From a virus, in IMG/VR virus record IMGVR_UViG_3300045120_000566, positions 1-43,936 of that record: a stretch of 43,936 nucleotides of DNA; one strand, 5' to 3'. Of this stretch, positions 4,665-37,231 are shown piece by piece. The notes below the pieces were generated by a model, which was given only the letters and a program-made list of their open reading frames with translations, searched no databases and had not been told where the DNA came from. Position 1 is the first letter of the stretch; the number at the start of each line of letters is the position of its first letter. Both the position numbers and the translations under genes were made by a program.

Positions 4665-4945
4665 GAGCGTCGCTTCGCCTCAGTGGCAATCCGTTTCCAG
4701 CCGGTCGGCGCCTGGTCGGACGGGATCGAAAACCACGTACCGTCGACGGGATCCTGGACGTTGATCCACCCGCGCGCGCGTGACCAGACAAGGGCTGGCG
4801 GCCAGAGCGCCTCAGCGGCAATGTCCATTCCCTTTTCCTGGCTATATAGGTGGGAATGGGGAATGGACATTTTTTGAGATTGCGCGCGGCCCAAAATCGA
4901 GGGTCCGTTCCCGCCCTTCGGGAATGGACTTTTGCGTTCAGTCAT
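4661..4945 (-). CDS. small hypothetical protein after the primase gene
   Basis: The longest sensible frame starts at 4945, just inside the primase stop, and gives 94 residues. Its first third is encoded by inverted repeats (4820-4929) with unusual codon use, so translation may really start at ATG 4870 or ATG 4828. The core, WPPALVWSRARGWINVQDPV followed by DGTWFSIPSDQAPTGWKRIA, has regular high-GC codons and looks like a real small domain. No family is recognised. It overlaps the nuclease gene by four bases. Confidence 0.55.
   Translation of the reverse strand: MTERKSPFPKGGNGPSILGRAQSQKMSIPHSHLYSQEKGMDIAAEALWPPALVWSRARGWINVQDPVDGTWFSIPSDQAPTGWKRIATEAKRRS
4820..4929. repeat. four alternating copies of GTCCATTCCC, origin-like
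   Basis: On the minus strand the motif GTCCATTCCC occurs twice, and its near-perfect complement twice, forming two hairpins. AATGTCCATTCCC (4820-4832) pairs with GGGAATGGACATT (4859-4871) around an AT-rich loop that contains the palindrome CTATATAG. GTCCGTTCCCG (4903-4913) pairs with CGGGAATGGAC (4919-4929), with one G-U pair. A T6 run follows the first stem on the plus strand. The array sits beside the primase/helicase gene, as phage origins often do. Confidence 0.6.
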
Positions 4946-8969: not shown

Positions 8970-9329
8970 TCAGCAGAGCCCCATACGAACAACGTCGAAC
9001 TCGCGGGCGCGACCAACGCTCAGCATCCAGCACACCGCGGCATGGTTGGCGTACGCGTCGAAGACCGACCGCGACGCATACGGCGTCGTCAACCACGTCG
9101 ACCTCAAAAACTGCCCCAGCCCAGCCGCGCCACTCCTCGCATTGACCGCGTTGGCATTCCAATGCGACTCGTACGTGACGATGCAGTCCGCGCGAGCTGA
9201 GTACGGCGAGACCTGTACGTCTTCTTCCTCAGCGCGAGCCGGCGCGGCCAGCCAGATGAGCGTGAACGCGATCAGTAGCGCGCATAGAAGGAACGTCAGC
9301 GACCACACCTCGCGGCGCGACAGCGCCAT
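8970..9329 (-). CDS. membrane-anchored lytic-transglycosylase-like protein
   Basis: The 119-residue protein starts with a hydrophobic helix (about residues 9-29) followed by an AxA-like PARAEEED site, typical of a signal peptide or anchor. The outer part has VTYESHWNANAV with a likely catalytic Glu at 54, then GAAGLGQFLRSTW, matching the lysozyme-like goose/SLT fold. It is short, so only a minimal domain is present. It lies in the early block, not with the lysis genes, so it may act at entry or in superinfection rather than in lysis. Its start overlaps the upstream stop. Confidence 0.75.
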   Translation of the reverse strand: MALSRREVWSLTFLLCALLIAFTLIWLAAPARAEEEDVQVSPYSARADCIVTYESHWNANAVNARSGAAGLGQFLRSTWLTTPYASRSVFDAYANHAAVCWMLSVGRAREFDVVRMGLC

Positions 9330-9643
9330 CAGGCGCTCTCCTCGTCGTCCAGCCGCGCACCGCAGTGCGGACAGACGGGTGGAGCTGCGTCCTGTGCCTG
9401 AGCCAGCAGCAGGATGTACTCGGCCGCCGTCTGCAGCGCTGGACTGAGTGCCGCGCTGTTGCGCAGTGCGTGCACCATGCCGTCGCGCCAGATGAGCCAA
9501 AACGTCGCGGCATCGACGTGTCCGACATCCGGGTGCCAGTGGCGTAGCGCGAAGCGACGGCGAGTAGCCGTCTGCTCAATGTCGAGCGTGGCGATGCTGG
9601 TGTCCGCGCGAGGCATAGCTTCGCCCTGGGTCGTTCTGGGCAT
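9329..9643 (-). CDS. hypothetical protein with C-terminal zinc ribbon
   Basis: A 104-residue protein with a helical body (GMVHALRNSAALSPALQTA) and a C-terminal CPHCGARLDDEE half-zinc-ribbon. Start ATG 9643 follows directly after the upstream stop; a second ATG ten codons on is possible. No family is recognised. Confidence 0.6.
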   Translation of the reverse strand: MPRTTQGEAMPRADTSIATLDIEQTATRRRFALRHWHPDVGHVDAATFWLIWRDGMVHALRNSAALSPALQTAAEYILLLAQAQDAAPPVCPHCGARLDDEESA

Positions 9644-9896: not shown

Positions 9897-9986
9897 CCCG
9901 CCAGCATGCCGGCACACCCAAAACCGCGTGCGCCATCTTTTTCGCCGCGTGGCGTTAGCGTGGCGCACCTCCCGTCTGCGCCATTG

Positions 9987-10744: not shown

Positions 10745-10924
10745 ATGGCACAGCCACGTGACGCCGGCGCGACGCGCCCTGAGGCACCTGACGCCGCGCG
10801 CCTGTTGCGCCCGGTGCCGCGCGAGACAGAGGTACTGGCACCCGTCTACGCGCTCATTCGGGAGATCGCTGAGCGACTCCGCCGCGACCAGGACTCAGGC
10901 GACGAACGCCAGCCTCGGCGATAG
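10745..10924 (+). CDS. small charged protein facing the integrase gene
   Basis: A 59-residue frame, AQPRDAGATRPEAPDAARLL through VYALIREIAERLRRDQDSG, is a plausible small helical protein. It ends at a TAG inside the left arm of the candidate attP (10918-10971) and overlaps the 3' end of the integrase gene by 30 bases on the opposite strand. A recombination directionality factor would be an attractive guess, given its place, but nothing in the sequence proves it. No clear ribosome site is visible before ATG. Confidence 0.45.
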   Translation: MAQPRDAGATRPEAPDAARLLRPVPRETEVLAPVYALIREIAERLRRDQDSGDERQPRR

Positions 10925-12673
10925 CACTTGCAGGTCGTACTTCAAGAAGCACGGCAGACAATTGCTATCGCTTGTCTGAGCCACGCTGACCTGGACCGTA
11001 CCGCTCCAGCGGATCGCCACCGTGCGCTGAGGTCTTGTCTGAACCATCACCTGCTCGCCGTCCGACCCGACCACCGCGCGCAGATTGGCCAGTCCGATGA
11101 TGCGTCGGCGATCGGCCGCAGTGGCGTGTTCAGCCACAAGCTGCACGTCGCCCGCCAGTCGCTGTAACTCGTCGACTTCAGCCGAGCTGAGTCCAGCACC
11201 AGGCGCCGCCTCGACTTCCCGCAATTCCCGTCGAAGTCGTACCAGCAGTGCTTTGGCGTCATCGCGTTCGGCTGTGTGGATGGCGGCCTCTTCCTTGGCC
11301 ATGTCGTCACCTTCAGCCTCGAGCTCCGTGAGCCGCTTGACGTGAACGCGCAGGCGACGCTCGCAACTCGCGATCTCGCCCTCCACCGCGCGCCGTCGGT
11401 CATCTCGTCCACGATCATCAAGCCGACGCCGTTCTCGCGCGGCCTCAAGCTCAGCGCGCAATCGATCTGGATCCGACAGCACCTCGACCAGCGCAGCCCA
11501 TGCCTGCGCCTCGATCAGGTCTGCACGCACACGCGGCACCGAACAGCGCTCACGGCCCACTGGTGCCCGCAGGCTGCCGCGGTCAGCTTCGCTCAGGGAA
11601 CGCGAGCAGACGTAGTAGCGATTGTTCGCCTGGTTGGCGATCTTCGTTTGGAAGATGACCGCGCGCCCCTCACGCTCAGTGCAGGGACCACACTCCAGCC
11701 GCCCCCTGAACAAGTAAGGGTCATCTTCGGCCTTGATTCGTGCGGCACCGCGGCGACCGCGCCGTGCAGCCATTGCTTCGGCCACCAGTTCGAAAGTGTC
11801 GGTGGTGACGATCGGCGTGACCGGGAACTCCCGCCCGCCCCACGTGTACGTGCCGGTGTAAACGCGATCGGTGAGGATGCGATGCACGCTGTGGCCTTCC
11901 CAGTGCCTACCAGCGCTAGCCGTGTACCACGCCTTTCGAAACGTCAGGGTGGCGCCGGGCGGCGGGATTGCTTCAGCCTGAAGCCAGACCAGGAGTGTTG
12001 CGAGTGAACCGACCAGCGCACGCGCGTAGAGTTCGCGCACCACTCGCGCCTCGGGCTCGTAGACCTCTAACCCGCAGACAGCGTGTTTCGGTGTCTCATC
12101 GCGTACGTAGCGGAATCCATACGGCGGCCGCCCACTGCCGGGCACGCGTCCTTCGTCAGCTTTGTCGCGCCGTCCATGCATCGTTCGCCACCTGATCCGA
12201 GCACGCTCGAACTCAGCGTCCATGAATGCTTCTGATTCCATCTTCTGGCGCCAATGCGTCGCGTACGGGTTGCCGTCGCCAGGATCAGGCACATCAGGCA
12301 GGTCACCCCACACCACACGTACGCCGTAGTCGCGGACCTGTCGCGTAAATGCAAGCCCCTTAGGCGTGTCGCGCGTCCAGCGATCAGTCGTTGGCACGAG
12401 CAACGTCTTGAAACGTCCAGCACGAGCGAGCTCGACAACGCGCTCGAGCTGTGGCAGATCCCAGCGAGCACCGCCAGCGTCCTCGTCGACGCCATCGCGG
12501 AAGCGCAGTTCGGCAGGCAGCGTCAGCCCGAGGTCCTGAGCCATGTCGTCGACACTGCGCTCGGTTCGCCGCAGACCGCGGCCATAGATCGCTTGAACCT
12601 GACGGCTGACACGTTCGTAGGAGGCAGCAGTCTCGACGGGGTCAGTCGCCCATGTCACCGGCGCTCTTCCCAT
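10895..12673 (-). CDS. int: large serine recombinase (phage integrase)
   Basis: The 592-residue protein has the N-terminal resolvase domain (about 14-170), with the catalytic serine in SYERVS at S23 and DRWTRD at 97-102. A recombinase domain follows (about 180-310, with GSGRPPYGFRY). Next comes a zinc ribbon with cysteines at 328, 331, 356 and 377, and a coiled coil (about 400-500). This is the classic large serine integrase layout, which joins attP and attB. The C-terminal tail after WSGTVQV is encoded by a candidate attP, so it would change upon integration. The start overlaps the end of the regulator gene by 19 bases, suggesting co-transcription. Confidence 0.92.
   Translation of the reverse strand: MGRAPVTWATDPVETAASYERVSRQVQAIYGRGLRRTERSVDDMAQDLGLTLPAELRFRDGVDEDAGGARWDLPQLERVVELARAGRFKTLLVPTTDRWTRDTPKGLAFTRQVRDYGVRVVWGDLPDVPDPGDGNPYATHWRQKMESEAFMDAEFERARIRWRTMHGRRDKADEGRVPGSGRPPYGFRYVRDETPKHAVCGLEVYEPEARVVRELYARALVGSLATLLVWLQAEAIPPPGATLTFRKAWYTASAGRHWEGHSVHRILTDRVYTGTYTWGGREFPVTPIVTTDTFELVAEAMAARRGRRGAARIKAEDDPYLFRGRLECGPCTEREGRAVIFQTKIANQANNRYYVCSRSLSEADRGSLRAPVGRERCSVPRVRADLIEAQAWAALVEVLSDPDRLRAELEAARERRRLDDRGRDDRRRAVEGEIASCERRLRVHVKRLTELEAEGDDMAKEEAAIHTAERDDAKALLVRLRRELREVEAAPGAGLSSAEVDELQRLAGDVQLVAEHATAADRRRIIGLANLRAVVGSDGEQVMVQTRPQRTVAIRWSGTVQVSVAQTSDSNCLPCFLKYDLQVLSPRLAFVA
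10918..10971. other. attP: candidate attP within the 3' end of int
   Basis: This 54-bp block is an imperfect inverted repeat in which 20 of 27 base pairs match. The outer arms GCGATAGCA and TGCTATCGC pair perfectly, and the centre reads CTTC-AA-GAAG with a non-palindromic AA at 10944-10945. Serine-integrase attP sites are about 50 bp, imperfectly symmetric and have a central dinucleotide, so length and form fit. The adjacent integrase and lack of any other such symmetry nearby support it. The site lies in the last codons of int and the last codons of the 10745 gene. Confidence 0.6.
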
Positions 12674-12924
12674 AGGTCAGTGGGTTTGACCTTGAGGGCA
12701 CGCGCGAGTTTTCTGAGCGTAGTAGGGAGGACGTTCGGGTCGCCCTGCTCGAGTCGGATGATGGTCGCACGTGAGACACCTGCACGTTCGGCGAGGTCGA
12801 TCTGCGTGAGCGCGGCACGCAATCGTAAGTCGCGTAGCCTGACCAGGGCCGGCACGTGTCCCACGGTAGTTGAATGAGGGATTAACAGGGGTGGCCTGAG
12901 TGTACTGCCGATGTCAATTGCCAT
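12655..12924 (-). CDS. XRE-family repressor-like protein
   Basis: The C-terminal part is a clear Cro/CI-type HTH: LRAALTQIDLAERAGVSRAT, then IIRLEQGDPNVLPTTLRKLA and a DLWEERR end. From ATG 12924 it has 89 residues; a GTG at 12864 would give a shorter protein starting near the HTH. It is divergent from the rightward genes starting at 12984 and directly upstream of int. This is the usual place for a lysogeny repressor. A near-palindrome ATGTCAATTGCCAT covers the ATG and may be its own operator. Confidence 0.8.
   Translation of the reverse strand: MAIDIGSTLRPPLLIPHSTTVGHVPALVRLRDLRLRAALTQIDLAERAGVSRATIIRLEQGDPNVLPTTLRKLARALKVKPTDLWEERR
12911..12924. promoter_or_regulatory. near-palindromic operator candidate
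   Basis: ATGTCAATTGCCAT matches its own reverse complement at 12 of 14 positions, with core CAATTG. It sits in the divergent region between the HTH regulator and the rightward genes, covering the regulator's first codon. That place would allow autoregulation of both directions. Binding is inference. Confidence 0.35.
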
Positions 12925-12983
12925 AGGTCGGGCAGTGTAACATACAGGTTGCACCGGTGTCGGCTAAGGGGTATCCTCAGGGG

Positions 12984-31130: not shown

Positions 31131-31331
31131 ATGCGAGTACCGCCTATTCCCAAGTGGATCAGCGCGTCCATCTTTCTTGGCTGGTTGGCTGCCTTCACCT
31201 ACTTCGTCAACGCCGAAGGTCGCGACCACCTCACCATTTCGCTCATCCTCGGCCTGGCCGCAGTGGCGTTCATCGCCGCCCTGTTCATCGACGACCGCTG
31301 GTTCCACGCGCGCCGCAGACGCAAGCACTAG
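31131..31331 (+). CDS. antisense two-helix membrane protein
   Basis: The 66-residue protein has two hydrophobic helices (about 10-24 and 34-53: ISASIFLGWLAAFTYF and ISLILGLAAVAFIAALFI) and a basic C-terminus (HARRRRKH), as in a small inner-membrane protein. It is on the opposite strand in a 226-base gap between two large late genes and overlaps the polyvalent protein stop by four bases. Its third codon positions are strongly GC-rich, like real genes here. A minus-strand frame in the same gap is less protein-like. It could be a moron gene expressed in lysogeny. Confidence 0.6.
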   Translation: MRVPPIPKWISASIFLGWLAAFTYFVNAEGRDHLTISLILGLAAVAFIAALFIDDRWFHARRRRKH

Positions 31332-34300
31332 CGGACTCCCTGCGCTTCGAGCAGCCTGCGGCGCCGATCGATTTCCGCCTGACCGATCCGATCGACGATG
31401 TCCGCGCGCGCCTGCTGGCGAGTCTCAGTCGCAACCTCTTGCACGTAGTCAAGACGGTCCTGCTTGGGCATGCTCTGGAGCGTGCCGCTCTGCTCGAGTC
31501 GGTGGATCTCGTCATCGAGGTAGCGGTTCGCCATCTGCTGGTACTGCGTCTCCTCGTCGCGGCGTAGCGGGATGCCTTCGATGTTGCTGTCGACAGGCGA
31601 CGGCACGTACTCCACACCTTGCGACTGCAGGAACGTCTGTGCTGACGGCGTGAGCACGTTCTCGCGCGCCTGACGGCTCGTCTCACCTATCAGGCCACCC
31701 TCGCCGGCCGCCCGAAGGGCACCGCCCAATACAGGCACCTTCTGCGGCTCATTACCCTGCTGTGGCTCAGCGCCAGGCAGCAGTGCGCGGGCGCCAAGGC
31801 CCATCTCGCCGATCCCGCCGAGCATGTCCTTGACCGCGAAGTCGACCTGGGCAGGCTGAATCTCGTACTTCGGATCGATCGTGCGCGCAACGCTGGTCAG
31901 GCCACCCGCGATCTCACGACCAGCCTGCGACGCTTCCTTATTGGTCCGCTCGGTGGCGATCTGCGTCCCGCGGAAGAAGTCGCGATTCAGTCCGAGCTGG
32001 GTGGCCGTATTCACGCCCGGCGCAATCTCGGGCAGGAGCTGACGGGGCACGTCCCCCAGCGAACCCGCCTTGGTCGGCGCCGCCGTCCACAGGATGTCTT
32101 GCAGCAGGTGCTGCCAGTCTTCGGGCTTGGCATTCTCGTTGCCCGCCGCCGACAGGACGTTGCTCGCAGCTTCGCGTGCGATATTGGAGAACACGCCGCG
32201 GCTGCCGAAATTCATGCCCCAGTACTGGGGGTGGCGATTGCCGTCCTTATCGACGGGGGCTTCGCCCGGCAGCATGATCACTGGCCCCTGGCGCTTGACG
32301 CTCTGCGGCACGTCGTCGTAATCCTTGCTGCGCTGGGCGTCGCTGCGGTTCCACGCTTCGGCGAGGATCGTCGGCAAGCCCACCAGCATGGCCATCGACG
32401 CGGTCGCGCCCTTCGGGTTCTCCTTGAACATGCGCGCCACCTGGGCCACATCCTGGGGGCCGACGTTGAAGAACGGGATGAACGAGTTGAGGGTCTTGGA
32501 CAGCGTGCCGCCCTCGTTGAAGTCGAGCGTGGTCGTGCGTCCCTCGAGGATGGCGCGCTGGGGGGTGGCGCCACGTGCTTCAGCGAGGCGCATGGCGGCG
32601 ATGCGCGGTCCTGCTTCCGAACGTTCAGCGATCGCCTGGACCGGGTCGAAGATGCGACGCACGATACGCGCGATGTCGTTGCCGCTGGTGATATCGATCT
32701 TCTCGCCGCCGGCGATCTTTGCGATCTCCTCAGCCCGCTTCTCAGCAGTGCTGACGATCGTCGAGCCCGAGCCTCCACCAGCCATGTACTGCTGCATGCC
32801 CGGCCCGCGGAACTCGCCCTGCGGCAACCCCTGAAACGCGTCGGCGTAACCGCTGAACAATGCCGAGACGACGCGTTTGAGCTGGCGCGGATCCCCGCCC
32901 TCGCGCGCCATCTGGCGCTGCAGGTAGAGCGGAACGTCGAGGGTCGGGTTGCGAATCAACGCGAACGCCGGGCTCAGCACGGTAGTCACGCCTCTCTGGA
33001 AATTGACCCAGTCGCGCGTGAAACCTGGCGCCTGCTCGATCTGCGCACCATTGATCACCTCGGCCACGTCTGGTGGTGCGACGTGCCGCTCCACCACCCC
33101 GTTGCGGATGTACTGAATGACGCTCTCGCCGGTCTTGACCGGAGCATCGGTCGGCAGGATGCGCGGCGGGTCCGGGCCGAGTTTGTCGAGGTCGAGCACC
33201 GCGCGAACCGCCTCATTCTTGCGGGCGTTCTTCTCCACCTGCTGGACCAGGCCGAGCACCGACGCCAGTGGATCCTCGCGGAACTTCTCCGTGCCCACGT
33301 CGCTGTAACTGCGCACGCCGTTATCGGATAGCGAAATCTTCGAGCCGACGCGCGGTCCGCCCGCCTCGTCGAGATAATCGAGGATGCGCGTGGGCACCCA
33401 GTTCGGATACTGCCCGTTCCACATGTTGAAGTCGTGCTGGTCGATGAGCCCCGAGTCGAGCATGCGTTTGCGCAATTGGCCGACCAGGTCGTAGACCTGC
33501 GAACCCGATCCCTGGAGCGTCTTCCACGCCTCGGGTCCAAGCTCGGTCTGCATCTGACGCAGGGCGTTTTGCGATTCCATCAGACTGCCGCCGCCGGGGA
33601 ACGTGCGGTACGTCTGCCCAGTGGCGGCCGCGATGTCGATGTTATTGCGGTGGATCAGATAGCTCGACAGGAGCTTGCCGGCCGCCTCATCACCACCCAG
33701 CGCCGCGACAGCGGGCTTGAGATAGGTATCCTCGGCGATCTTGACCGAGCCATCGGTCGACATGTTGCGGATCTTTGCCGACAGGTCGAGCCCTTCGGGC
33801 GTTTTACCGGGCGTGTCGGGCGTCAGATTCGCATCGCGCAACGCGTCTTCCATATACCGATCGGCCGCTTCGAAACGGTTCGTGGTCGCGCGCACGAACT
33901 TGTTGAGCCGACTGCTCGTATTCTCGACCTGCGGCAGTGGCGCCTCGAGCATGGTCTTCGTGCCCTGATTAGCCGGCACCTCGTACGCGCGACGGATCGC
34001 TTCGGGATCCAGCTTCCCCGGCTTCCCACCCGGCGTGTGGGTCCCGGCGTACGCCTCGCCAAGCCGCGTACCGCGCAACGCCTCAGCCACCTGAGCGTCG
34101 GTCGGCTCCACACCCCTGGTGCTGAGTCGCGCGAGCTGGCGAGCCGTGTCGATCGCTTCAGGCGAAGCCTGCTGCAGCAGCTCCTCGTCGGTCATCAGCG
34201 CCGGCCCCTTGAGCATCGGGGCGACGACATCCCCCGCGGCGACATCGCTCGCCACGTTGATGTCCTGCCCTTGCTGCATCACGCGGCCGGCACCCGTCAG

Positions 34301-37231
34301 CGCGTCACGGATCCCACCGCCGATCTGATCTCGCAGGGCGTATGCCCCGGCGCCAACTGCTGCCGCGCCGCCCAGACCAGCCGCGAACCCAGCATTGGCT
34401 TCACCACCCTGTTGTCCGCTGATCGCATTGCGGAGTTTGTTTAGCGATGAGCCAAAGATCACGGTCCCCTCGTCGCCGCCCCGAATGCCGTCATAGCCCG
34501 CTCGCTCAATGAGACGATTGGCCTCAGTCACACTCAATGCGGCACGGCCGGTGGTCAGAAACCTCCAGAGCGCATCCGGCGAAGCAAGGTCCGTAGCCTC
34601 ACCGCCCGCGTCTGTAATGGTCTGTTTGACGTATTGGAGCGTGGCAGCCCGCTCGGGGTCACGAGTCCGAAGAACCTGACTCAGGCGCTCTAACTCGTCA
34701 GGGGCTACATCATCAACCGTTTGAAGATCGAACAACTTCACGTTCGATGGCATGTCAATGGCGCGGACATTTGCGCCGACCTGTGAGGGCTCGTCATAGT
34801 GCCCACGCCAGTCGCGGGCGTAACTACTCGCGTAGTCAGGATTGGGGGTGACGTAGTACCCCGGCCCGAGCGTGTTTTCGCCTTCAACCGCGGGTAAATC
34901 TGCACGAGCGGTGGCGAAGTCCGCGGTTGTCCCGTGGTACATACGCGTACTGCCCGGCTCGTGTGTGCCCGCATACGCCTCGCCCAGTTTCGTCGAGCGC
35001 AGCACACTCGCAATATCCGCGGCTGTCGGCTCCTTGCCGCGCGTGCTGACCTGATACAACCGGCGCGCGTTCTCAATATCCTGCGGTCCGGCTTGATCGA
35101 GCAACTCCTGGTCGGTCGTGAGCTCGGGGCCGCGCAGAATCCCCGGAATCCGCGTCGGATCCTGGAAGATGGTCGACTGTGGGGGACCGATACCGCCCGC
35201 TGGCTGGCCCGTCAGGCGCGCTGAGGGCGCGCCCAGGGCATTGCCCGTACCGAGCGGGTTGGTGAGCACGTCTGAGGGGATCGGCTGCATGCCCGCGGTC
35301 TGCGAGGTGTCCGTCGACCCGCCAATGCCCAGGTTCTTGAGGCCGCTAGTGATGGCATTGGCAATATTGCTGCCCATCTCCTCGAGCGGACTCTTGGGCG
35401 GCTCGAGCGGCTGTGGAGTGCCTACCTGAGCGGCTTGCTGAGTGGTAGGGCCGAACACGTTCGAGGTATCGCTGAACACCGACGACTGTCCAGGCAGGAC
35501 CGCGGCACCGGGGAGCTCCGTCGACGGCTTTGGCGGCAGCAAACTATCGACCATGGCGTCTTTCGCCCGCCCGAGCCAGCCCAGCGGATTGCTGTCCTGA
35601 TCGGCCAGACTCGGCGACGCCACCTGTGGGTTGTCAGCCAGCAAGCCACCCTGGACGGGACCCATGATGGCCGTCATCTGCTCAGGCGTCATCCATTCCG
35701 AGCCGCCCTTCAGGTCCAGGCCAGAGCGACCAACGTGGAAGCGATTGGTCTGCGGATCCCACCCGTCCGCGGTGAAGTAGTGGCCAGTCGTGGAGATGGT
35801 GACGGGGTTGCCGGTCCTCGCCTCGTTGGCGAACGTCCCCCAGTCGGCGCCACTGACCAGTTTCGTTGGCACGCCCAGTTTGTCCATAAGCGCCTTCTCG
35901 GAGCCGAGTCCAGCCATGCCCTGGCTCGAGGTCCAACCAACCGTCTTGGCCAGGTCGGTCGCCTCGCGTAGGGTGGGGTTCCGTCCGAAGCGCTGAGCGA
36001 AGCGCACAGCAGCCGCTGGTCCACACGCGGCGTACGCCTCGTCATTGGTGAGCTGGCTATCGCCAAACTGGCTGACATCACGTCCGCCAGCGGCCTGCTG
36101 AGCCCAGCCACCTGTCTGGCTGAGTGCCTGCTCGGCCGCGGTCGTCCCCGTCCGAGTGCCGGTGAGTTGCATCAATGGCGTGATCGACTGATCAGCAATC
36201 TGCCCGATCTTCTTCCCCCATACTGGATCGGTGGCATAACCCGCTGCGTTGATGCCCTGCATGAACTGGTCGGGCGAGATCTGGCCGCTACGGAGTTGCT
36301 GGTAGATGGGCTGGTAGCGACGACCTTGCAGGAACTGATCGAGCGACGCGAACGCTTCGTCCGGCGAGTTGTAGTTGGCGAAGGTGTCGGTCGTCGCACC
36401 CTGACCCTGTTCCCAGGTTGCGCTCGTGAGACCAGGCGCCGTACCGGGCTGACTGCCCTGCTTGATGCCGAACAAGGCATTGCCAGCCTTGCCCCAATTG
36501 GACTCGCTGGCTGCCCACGCTGTCAGATAGCTGGCCGGAATACCAGTAATACCGGCCCACTTCTCGGCGTACGGCTGCATCGATTGCACAAAAGACGCGT
36601 GATTCGAAGCATCGATTTGTCCACCGGGTGCCGGCCCGCCACTCGCGAGTGAACGAGTGGGGGCCGACGTGGTCGGACGCAGATTCTGCAAGAACTGATC
36701 GACATCACCACCCGCCTGCAGGACGGCGTTCATGGCGTCCATGGTGCGATCGCCCGACCCCTCACCGAGTCCACTGACGAACTTGCCAACGTCCGCTCCA
36801 GCGGACACCGCGGCGCCGAACGCACTCTGCAGCCAGTTATCGTCGCCGGCTGGAGCGGATACCGGCGGCGAGGGTGGTACCGCTGGCGCAACAGGTGTCG
36901 CAGCCGGCGCCACCGGTCCTGGCGGAGCGGGTGGCGCGGCCAGCGACGGCTCGGGAGACGGTGGTGCCTCCGGAGGGGGAACCTCCGAAGCGGGAGCCGG
37001 CTCAGGAGCCGCGGGCTCGGAAGGAGGAGCCGCGAGCTGTGCTGGTGTCGGCTGCGCCGACTGCTGATACTCGGTAGCCGCCCACGAGCCGATGCGATTC
37101 AGGTCGGCGAGTCGGTCGTTCGCCGTCTGGGTGAGGTCCAGGCTGTGGATCTTCCGATCGGCCTCTTCGCTGAAGAGTTGGTTATGCCAATCGTCATACC
37201 CCTGCTCGTCGACATCCGGCAGCATCGTCAC
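31328..37231 (-). CDS. giant polyvalent virion protein: lysozyme-like, C39, ART, LPD38
   Basis: This 1967-residue protein looks like a phage polyvalent protein. After a Pro/Ala-rich segment (60-130) comes a glucosaminidase-like wall hydrolase (about 206-350, SESNWGK with E243). A C39-like peptidase domain follows (about 395-530, C403 in AACGPAAA, H484 and D492). An ADP-ribosyltransferase-like domain (about 764-940) has MYHGT with H766, GPGYYV at 789-794 and DEGTVIFG with E921. An LPD38-like region lies at about 1400-1780 (STAEKRAEEI, FDPVQAIAERSEAGPR). A duplicated module (699-760 and 1007-1068) flanks the ART domain. Such proteins are thought to be injected with the DNA to open the wall and act on host targets. 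It is encoded between the portal and scaffold groups. Confidence 0.75.
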   Translation of the reverse strand: MTMLPDVDEQGYDDWHNQLFSEEADRKIHSLDLTQTANDRLADLNRIGSWAATEYQQSAQPTPAQLAAPPSEPAAPEPAPASEVPPPEAPPSPEPSLAAPPAPPGPVAPAATPVAPAVPPSPPVSAPAGDDNWLQSAFGAAVSAGADVGKFVSGLGEGSGDRTMDAMNAVLQAGGDVDQFLQNLRPTTSAPTRSLASGGPAPGGQIDASNHASFVQSMQPYAEKWAGITGIPASYLTAWAASESNWGKAGNALFGIKQGSQPGTAPGLTSATWEQGQGATTDTFANYNSPDEAFASLDQFLQGRRYQPIYQQLRSGQISPDQFMQGINAAGYATDPVWGKKIGQIADQSITPLMQLTGTRTGTTAAEQALSQTGGWAQQAAGGRDVSQFGDSQLTNDEAYAACGPAAAVRFAQRFGRNPTLREATDLAKTVGWTSSQGMAGLGSEKALMDKLGVPTKLVSGADWGTFANEARTGNPVTISTTGHYFTADGWDPQTNRFHVGRSGLDLKGGSEWMTPEQMTAIMGPVQGGLLADNPQVASPSLADQDSNPLGWLGRAKDAMVDSLLPPKPSTELPGAAVLPGQSSVFSDTSNVFGPTTQQAAQVGTPQPLEPPKSPLEEMGSNIANAITSGLKNLGIGGSTDTSQTAGMQPIPSDVLTNPLGTGNALGAPSARLTGQPAGGIGPPQSTIFQDPTRIPGILRGPELTTDQELLDQAGPQDIENARRLYQVSTRGKEPTAADIASVLRSTKLGEAYAGTHEPGSTRMYHGTTADFATARADLPAVEGENTLGPGYYVTPNPDYASSYARDWRGHYDEPSQVGANVRAIDMPSNVKLFDLQTVDDVAPDELERLSQVLRTRDPERAATLQYVKQTITDAGGEATDLASPDALWRFLTTGRAALSVTEANRLIERAGYDGIRGGDEGTVIFGSSLNKLRNAISGQQGGEANAGFAAGLGGAAAVGAGAYALRDQIGGGIRDALTGAGRVMQQGQDINVASDVAAGDVVAPMLKGPALMTDEELLQQASPEAIDTARQLARLSTRGVEPTDAQVAEALRGTRLGEAYAGTHTPGGKPGKLDPEAIRRAYEVPANQGTKTMLEAPLPQVENTSSRLNKFVRATTNRFEAADRYMEDALRDANLTPDTPGKTPEGLDLSAKIRNMSTDGSVKIAEDTYLKPAVAALGGDEAAGKLLSSYLIHRNNIDIAAATGQTYRTFPGGGSLMESQNALRQMQTELGPEAWKTLQGSGSQVYDLVGQLRKRMLDSGLIDQHDFNMWNGQYPNWVPTRILDYLDEAGGPRVGSKISLSDNGVRSYSDVGTEKFREDPLASVLGLVQQVEKNARKNEAVRAVLDLDKLGPDPPRILPTDAPVKTGESVIQYIRNGVVERHVAPPDVAEVINGAQIEQAPGFTRDWVNFQRGVTTVLSPAFALIRNPTLDVPLYLQRQMAREGGDPRQLKRVVSALFSGYADAFQGLPQGEFRGPGMQQYMAGGGSGSTIVSTAEKRAEEIAKIAGGEKIDITSGNDIARIVRRIFDPVQAIAERSEAGPRIAAMRLAEARGATPQRAILEGRTTTLDFNEGGTLSKTLNSFIPFFNVGPQDVAQVARMFKENPKGATASMAMLVGLPTILAEAWNRSDAQRSKDYDDVPQSVKRQGPVIMLPGEAPVDKDGNRHPQYWGMNFGSRGVFSNIAREAASNVLSAAGNENAKPEDWQHLLQDILWTAAPTKAGSLGDVPRQLLPEIAPGVNTATQLGLNRDFFRGTQIATERTNKEASQAGREIAGGLTSVARTIDPKYEIQPAQVDFAVKDMLGGIGEMGLGARALLPGAEPQQGNEPQKVPVLGGALRAAGEGGLIGETSRQARENVLTPSAQTFLQSQGVEYVPSPVDSNIEGIPLRRDEETQYQQMANRYLDDEIHRLEQSGTLQSMPKQDRLDYVQEVATETRQQARADIVDRIGQAEIDRRRRLLEAQGVR
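34028..34213 (-). repeat. duplicated module, copy 2 (after the ART domain)
   Basis: Residues 1007-1068 (LKGPALMTDEELLQQASP through GEAYAGTHTPGGK) repeat the module at 699-760 with clear divergence. This suggests an old duplication that may have let the ART cassette be inserted or exchanged by recombination. Confidence 0.75.
34952..35137 (-). repeat. duplicated module, copy 1 (before the ART domain)
   Basis: Residues 699-760 of the polyvalent protein (LRGPELTTDQELLDQAGP through GEAYAGTHEPGS) recur almost whole at 1007-1068. The copies share the pattern L+GPxLxTDxELLxQA...ARxLxxxSTRGxEPT...LRxTxLGEAYAGTH. They bracket the ADP-ribosyltransferase-like domain. Confidence 0.75.

What the first reader, a model, noticed from the sequence alone, without database searches (positions are those of the whole stretch)
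10918..10971. Candidate attP hidden in the 3' end of the serine integrase gene
A 54-bp imperfect inverted repeat (20 of 27 pairs match, against about 7 expected by chance) with perfect 9-bp outer arms and a central CTTC-AA-GAAG lies in the final codons of int. It has the size, symmetry and asymmetric central dinucleotide expected of a serine-integrase attP. If it is used, integration would replace about the last 15 codons of int and cut the end of the 10745 gene. The free and integrated forms would then encode different protein tails, possibly a switch that affects excision or RDF control.
Basis: partly seen in the sequence, partly recalled or inferred. Interest (0 to 1): 0.85.

Follow-up and report, generated by a model that had tools for sequence, protein, structure and literature searches.

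The report
Phage insertion site inside integrase gene
A soil-type virus of bacteria appears to keep the DNA site it uses to insert into its host inside the end of its own integrase gene, so inserting would swap the integrase's tail, and that tail ends in what looks like a protein-destruction tag.

Summary
The 54-bp inverted repeat is real and is very probably attP of the large serine integrase (LSI). Five relatives (int 55-82% identical; one contig carries a 127-bp terminal repeat, so probably a complete circular genome) hold a palindrome in the same register in the last codons of int. Its arms covary, its codons favour symmetry beyond what the protein requires, and synonymous sites are depressed. 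Both half-sites carry TAG 20-22 bp from the centre, where the published Listeria LSI attP has its zinc-ribbon motif. It is the only such site in the window. The same scan recovers the A118 and phiBT1 attP sites.

No lysogen was found, so recombination, attB and host are unproven. The convergent 10745 gene would not be cut: its stop codon lies on its own side. In A118 and three distant relatives the attP (or its candidate) centre lies 46-47 bp past the int stop; here the reading frame runs on through it. The added tail ends RLxF[AV]A in five of six, is conserved beyond the palindrome and is ssrA-like. Integration may therefore remove a degron from Int itself. That last step is inference.

The parts
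10895..12673 (-). int, large serine integrase, 592 aa; YERVS motif with presumed catalytic Ser23; Resolvase + Recombinase + zinc-ribbon domains
   Evidence: Pfam PF00239, PF07508, PF13408 (the zinc-ribbon match is below Pfam's cut-off); PHROG 95 integrase E 2.8e-52; low-confidence model still finds phiC31 integrase structures first
10918..10971 (.). 54-bp imperfect inverted repeat, candidate attP (on int sense strand GCGATAGCAATTGTCTGCCGTGCTTC-TT-GAAGTACGACCTGCAAGTGCTATCGC)
10944..10945 (.). central dinucleotide AA (TT on the int strand), predicted 2-bp crossover; TT in all six relatives
   Evidence: register inferred from symmetry and from A118/Listeria attP
10920..10928 (+). outer half-site, positions 24-16: GATAGCACT, zinc-ribbon (ZD) motif with TAG at 22-20
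   Evidence: register versus TTTAGTATC at 24-16 of Listeria attP (PMC3783163)
10961..10969 (-). outer half-site, positions 24-16: GATAGCAAT, ZD motif with TAG at 22-20
10895..10942 (-). 3' end of int beyond the crossover (Lys578-Ala592 and stop), lost from Int on integration
   Evidence: geometry
10895..10917 (-). last codons outside the palindrome, ending RLAFVA; RLxF[AV]A in five of six phages and MLAFVA in L002; ssrA-like candidate degron
   Evidence: pS 0.61, pN 0.18 in the last six codons versus pS 0.34 in the palindrome
10745..10924 (+). 59-aa ORF convergent with int, related ORF in all six phages (LAPxYxxIR core); ends in the outer arm of attP and stays intact on integration; RDF candidate by position only
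   Evidence: (69% identity over 48 aa to G001); no Pfam match
12655..12954 (-). Cro/C1-type helix-turn-helix gene upstream of int; HTH genes lie near int in all six
   Evidence: PF01381 E 3.3e-14

Best explanation
The repeat is attP of the phage's own large serine integrase. An Int dimer binds it with the recombinase domains on the inner bases and the zinc-ribbon domains on the outer arms (TAG at positions 22-20). It is cut at the central AA/TT and exchanged with a host attB that must carry the same central dinucleotide. Because the site lies inside int, the free phage encodes a 592-aa Int with a C-terminal extension of about 31-35 residues that passes through attP. The prophage would encode an Int cut after Leu577 and continued by host sequence to the next in-frame stop. 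The convergent small gene on the other side of attP would stay intact at the opposite prophage end. Shown here: the conserved, covarying, correctly registered site and its place in the gene. Inferred: that it recombines, and the tail exchange that follows. More tentative: the lost tail is a degron that keeps Int short-lived in the infecting phage.
For: (1) The same palindrome in the same register occurs in the int 3' end of five relatives, centred on TT, 51-54 nt before the end of the stop codon. (2) Covariation: 78% of cells paired versus 29-46% when slid 1-3 columns; covariation score 0.254 versus 0.152 +/- 0.023, reached by 0/500 shuffles; nine pairs with changes on both sides. (3) With the Int residues fixed and codons drawn by usage, summed symmetry is 107 observed versus 74.6 +/- 5.1, never reached in 20,000 draws; each phage alone gives P 0.0008-0.044. 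(4) Synonymous divergence is depressed in the palindrome, pS 0.34 versus 0.62 over the gene. (5) Published attP half-site of 25 bp with ZD motif TTTAGTATC at 24-16 (PMC3783163); here GATAGCAAT/GGTAGTAAT at 24-16. TAG at 22-20 in both halves occurs once in the window and marks this site in all six phages. (6) The same scan ranks the A118 attP first (GG centre as in PMC3556126) and the annotated phiBT1 attP first. (7) Three distant relatives have a TAG-bearing, TT-centred palindrome 47 nt past the int stop. (8) A related phage gene lies downstream of attP in G002, G004 and G005 as in the window, so the site is internal to unintegrated genomes; G001 has a 127-bp terminal repeat.
Against: No integrated copy, attL, attR or attB was found in 84,980 genomes or in about 1,640 further genomes drawn from Chloroflexota, Actinomycetota and Acidobacteriota groups; those draws partly overlap and the host is unknown. 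All six members carry the intact site, so none shows the integrated form. Three distant relatives also have a palindrome inside int, 75 nt before the stop, without the TAG register, so not every palindrome there is attP. Six related sequences are not independent.
Confidence: 0.85

Rival explanations
1. The palindrome is an RNA hairpin between two convergent genes, for example a bidirectional terminator or a brake on the int message, not a recombination site.
For: Both strands fold well as RNA (-24.9 and -23.1 kcal/mol, z -4.8 and -5.8), and it lies between convergent genes.
Against: No terminator-like site is found and there is no T run after it. It lies in codons, 23 nt before the end of int. 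The conserved parts are the outer arms at 15-24 and the core TTCTTGAA, with poorly paired stretches at 4-6 and 11-13, which fits two protein domains on DNA better than a hairpin. The ZD register match is unexplained.
Confidence: 0.07
2. It is an Int binding site used for autoregulation or for resolving multimers of an extrachromosomal prophage, not for chromosomal integration.
For: No lysogen found in large genome sets; G001 looks circular.
Against: The anatomy matches attP of chromosomally integrating phages in size, symmetry and register. Absence of lysogens is weak evidence when the host is unknown and probably unsampled.
Confidence: 0.06
3. The palindrome is a by-product of selection on the Int tail and the convergent small protein.
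For: Both reading frames overlap the region, and the int tail residues FLK[YF]..Q.L are conserved in most members.
Against: With the Int residues held fixed, symmetry still exceeds the codon-usage null in each of six phages; the small gene ends at or before the outer arm; arms change on both sides together.
Confidence: 0.02

Closest known systems
Large serine integrase attP x attB systems (A118, Listeria innocua Int, TP901-1, Bxb1, phiBT1, phiJoe)
   Same: About 50-bp imperfect palindrome next to int, asymmetric central dinucleotide, ZD motif at positions 16-24; A118 and TP901-1 also have attP on the 3' side of int (centres 46 and 26 bp past the stop)
   Different: Here attP lies wholly inside the int reading frame, its centre about 50 nt before the stop, so integration changes the Int C terminus
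Integration-dependent immunity of actinobacteriophages (BPs, Brujita, MabB; PMC8092301, PMC9262239)
   Same: attP inside a coding sequence near its 3' end; viral and prophage proteins differ at the C terminus; viral form ends in an ssrA-like motif; there too Int itself carries such a tag
   Different: Those are tyrosine integrases and attP lies in the repressor gene; here it is a serine integrase and attP lies in int. Degradation is not shown here
Archaeal 'suicidal' tyrosine integrases (SSV1, pTN3, pT26-2; PMC8371274)
   Same: Attachment site inside the element's own integrase gene
   Different: Serine not tyrosine recombinase; integration trims a disordered-looking tail instead of splitting off a catalytic part, so the prophage Int could stay active

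Membership tests
Large serine integrase attP | Encoded next to, and used by, a large serine integrase | tested here: met
   Resolvase, Recombinase and zinc-ribbon domains in one 592-aa protein; the site lies in its gene. Adjacency is met; use is not tested
Large serine integrase attP | About 50-bp imperfect inverted repeat | tested here: met
   54 bp, 20/27 pairs; conserved in six phages
Large serine integrase attP | ZD motif at positions 16-24 in both half-sites | tested here: met
   TAG at 22-20 as in the Listeria motif TTTAGTATC (PMC3783163)
Large serine integrase attP | Non-palindromic central dinucleotide shared with attB | tested here: inconclusive
   Centre TT/AA in all six; attB unknown
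Large serine integrase attP | Recombines with attB to give attL and attR | not testable with these tools
   No lysogen found
Integration-dependent immunity | attP inside the repressor gene | tested here: not met
   attP candidate is inside int; the HTH gene at 12655-12954 has no such site and ends EERR
Integration-dependent immunity | Tyrosine integrase | tested here: not met
   Serine recombinase domains
Integration-dependent immunity | Viral form ends in an ssrA-like tag that drives proteolysis | tested here: inconclusive
   Int ends F[AV]A in six of six; proteolysis not testable here
Archaeal suicidal integrases | Tyrosine integrase gene split by integration into its own att site | tested here: not met
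   Serine family; only the last 15 codons lie beyond the crossover

The most novel reading that the evidence does not exclude
Integration-dependent control of a serine integrase by its own attP: the infecting phage makes an Int with an ssrA-like C-terminal degron encoded beyond the crossover, so Int is short-lived; integration removes the degron, leaving a stable Int with a host-encoded tail in the lysogen, ready for excision when the RDF appears. This would be a self-editing recombinase in bacteria, made possible by loss of the ancestral stop codon before attP.
Probability: 0.3. Interest if true: 0.8.

Novelty: new variant of a known kind. Interest (0 to 1): 0.6.

Why it matters
Serine integrases are workhorses of genome engineering, and the control of their direction and level in nature is still incompletely understood. 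A site inside the gene would couple the integration state to the Int protein itself. A review of archaeal integrases states that recombinases disrupting their own gene are found only in archaea (PMC8371274), so a bacterial-virus serine integrase that rewrites its own tail would be a notable exception. It also gives six new int/attP pairs that can be tested directly.

Tried and rejected
Searches for lysogens: genome contigs with Int alone and with an eight-sequence alignment, and HMM searches of sampled Chloroflexota, a Solirubrobacteraceae class, Actinomycetota, Acidobacteriota and a Frankiaceae class: no family member. Plasmid and phage collections: only 22-30% relatives. A seven-sequence alignment was too diverse to scan with. 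An attP half-site pattern scan of viral contigs returned the five known relatives plus one contig, L121, that is a chance AT-rich match. The 4820-4871 palindrome was considered as a rival attP: it is 6 kb from int, lacks the TAG register, and no relative has a palindrome of that strength with those repeats. The structure model is poor (mean pLDDT 57); only the lack of predicted structure in residues 556-592 and the LSI fold match were used, and lightly. The literature search found no serine integrase with attP inside its own gene, but only open-licence papers are held and no systematic survey of phage LSIs was made. Broussard 2013 could not be read.

Full report
OBSERVATION. The window is a 43,936-bp virus record, 63% GC, with terminase, capsid and replication genes. 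The integrase gene runs 12673 to 10895 on the minus strand and encodes a 592-aa large serine integrase. The repeat at 10918-10971 is as described: 20 of 27 pairs, 9-bp perfect outer arms, central AA. In dinucleotide shuffles a repeat this good appears in 1.7% of whole-window shuffles, so sequence alone does not settle the matter.

RELATIVES. Scans of viral contigs gave five members of the same integrase family: L002 (82% identity) and L012, L013, L014, L020 (55-57%). Every one has an imperfect palindrome in the same register in the last codons of int, centred on TT (int strand), 51-54 nt before the end of the stop codon. Contig G001 (L002) repeats its first 127 bases at its end, the mark of a complete circular assembly, although the tool's summary does not class it so. 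A phage gene related to the window's 8970-9500 ORF lies downstream of attP in G002, G004 and G005, so the site is internal to unintegrated genomes.

IS THE SYMMETRY SELECTED? Three tests say yes. First, covariation: 78.2% of cells are paired; sliding the partner by 1-3 columns gives 29-46%; the covariation score of 0.254 exceeds all 500 shuffles (mean 0.152, sd 0.023), with nine pairs changed on both sides. Relatedness can inflate the shuffle control; the slid control keeps relatedness. Second, with the Int residues fixed and codons drawn by the gene's own usage, summed symmetry over six phages is 107 against 74.6 +/- 5.1 and no draw of 20,000 reached it; each phage alone gives P between 0.0008 and 0.044. 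Third, synonymous divergence falls from 0.62 in the gene to 0.34 in the palindrome, then returns to 0.61 in the last six codons.

WHY attP. The crystal structure of the Listeria integrase on its attP half-site (PMC3783163) puts a 9-bp zinc-ribbon motif, TTTAGTATC, at positions 24-16 from the central dinucleotide. Here positions 24-16 read GATAGCAAT in the window and GGTAGTAAT in L012 and L013, with TAG at 22-20 in both halves of all six. A site with TAG at 22-20 in both halves occurs once in the window, at this place; in the relatives it marks this site as the best of at most four. The A118 attP needs 50 bp with an asymmetric centre (PMC3556126). The same scan placed A118 attP first, 46 bp past the int stop, with TTTAG at 24-20 and the published GG centre (CC on the strand shown); phiBT1's annotated attP first; the Bxb1 attP fourth; and, for TP901-1, a site 26 bp past the int stop second, taken here as its attP. 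Calling the Bxb1 and TP901-1 sites attP rests on general knowledge.

HOW IT AROSE. In three distant relatives (L015-L017, about 25% identity) a TAG-bearing, TT-centred palindrome sits 47 nt past the int stop, as in A118. In the window family the frame continues through the site for about 31-35 further residues. The likely event is loss of the ancestral stop before attP (inference). The extension follows the last predicted strand and has no predicted structure (residues 556-592; low-confidence model).

CONSEQUENCE. The crossover at 10944/10945 falls in the codon of Leu577. Lys578-Ala592 and the stop would be lost from Int in the prophage and replaced by host-encoded residues. The convergent ORF 10745-10924 would not be cut, because its stop (10922-10924, the same TAG as the outer motif) is on its own side. 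A related ORF converges on int in all six phages and ends at or before the outer arm. In phiJoe the RDF gene lies on the far side of attP from int and was first suspected partly on such grounds (PMC5311408), so this ORF is an RDF candidate by position only.

THE TAIL. Beyond the palindrome the last six codons show pN 0.18 and pS 0.61 (ratio 0.29, gene 0.42). Leu588 uses CTG, CTT and CTC, and Ala592 uses GCC, GCG and GCT, while the opposite strand's residues vary, so selection acts on Int. All six end F[AV]A. Among the other 196 ORFs of at least 100 aa in these contigs, about 3% end in a hydrophobic residue followed by [AV]A. In integration-dependent immunity, attP lies inside the repressor gene, the viral protein carries an ssrA-like tag ending in AA, and Int carries one as well (PMC8092301, PMC9934374, PMC9262239). 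The parallel suggests that the viral Int is degraded and the prophage Int is not. This is inference: 151 of 578 six-codon windows of the gene have a pN as low, six related tails are few, and F[AV]A is not the classical LAA.

LIMITS. No integrated form was seen in 84,980 genomes or in further sampled genomes. The host is unknown, so attB is unknown. The literature search found no serine integrase with attP inside its own gene, but the library is incomplete and known LSIs were not surveyed systematically; TP901-1 attP already touches the int stop. I therefore call this a new variant of a known kind.

Noticed in passing
window 4820-4871: A second strong palindrome (26-nt arms, 81% complementary) with three copies of GAATGGAC/GTCCATTC at 4823, 4861 and 4922, followed by a T run; possible terminator or operator. 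Not found at that strength in the relatives.
   Followed up: partly
L015 3493, L016 7398, L017 5156 (centres): A 19-20/26 palindrome inside int, 75 nt before its stop, in addition to the TAG-bearing palindrome 47 nt past the stop. Its role is unknown.
   Followed up: partly
window 31328-37231: A 1,967-codon ORF with glucosaminidase and LPD38 polyvalent-protein domains, as in virion-injected polyvalent proteins.
   Followed up: no
window 9925-9975: Inverted GTGCGCCA / TGGCGCAC elements with a TTTTT run near 9930-9966; possible regulatory site or terminator.
   Followed up: no
L005, L006, L010: Plasmid-borne serine recombinases flanked by a CopG-like gene and a group II intron maturase-domain gene, a recurring trio in Rhizobium, Mesorhizobium and Rhodococcus.
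   Followed up: no
window 12655-12954; L002, L012-L014, L020: The Cro/C1-type HTH gene lies upstream of int in the window and G003 but on the far side of attP in the others, so the module has been rearranged.
   Followed up: partly
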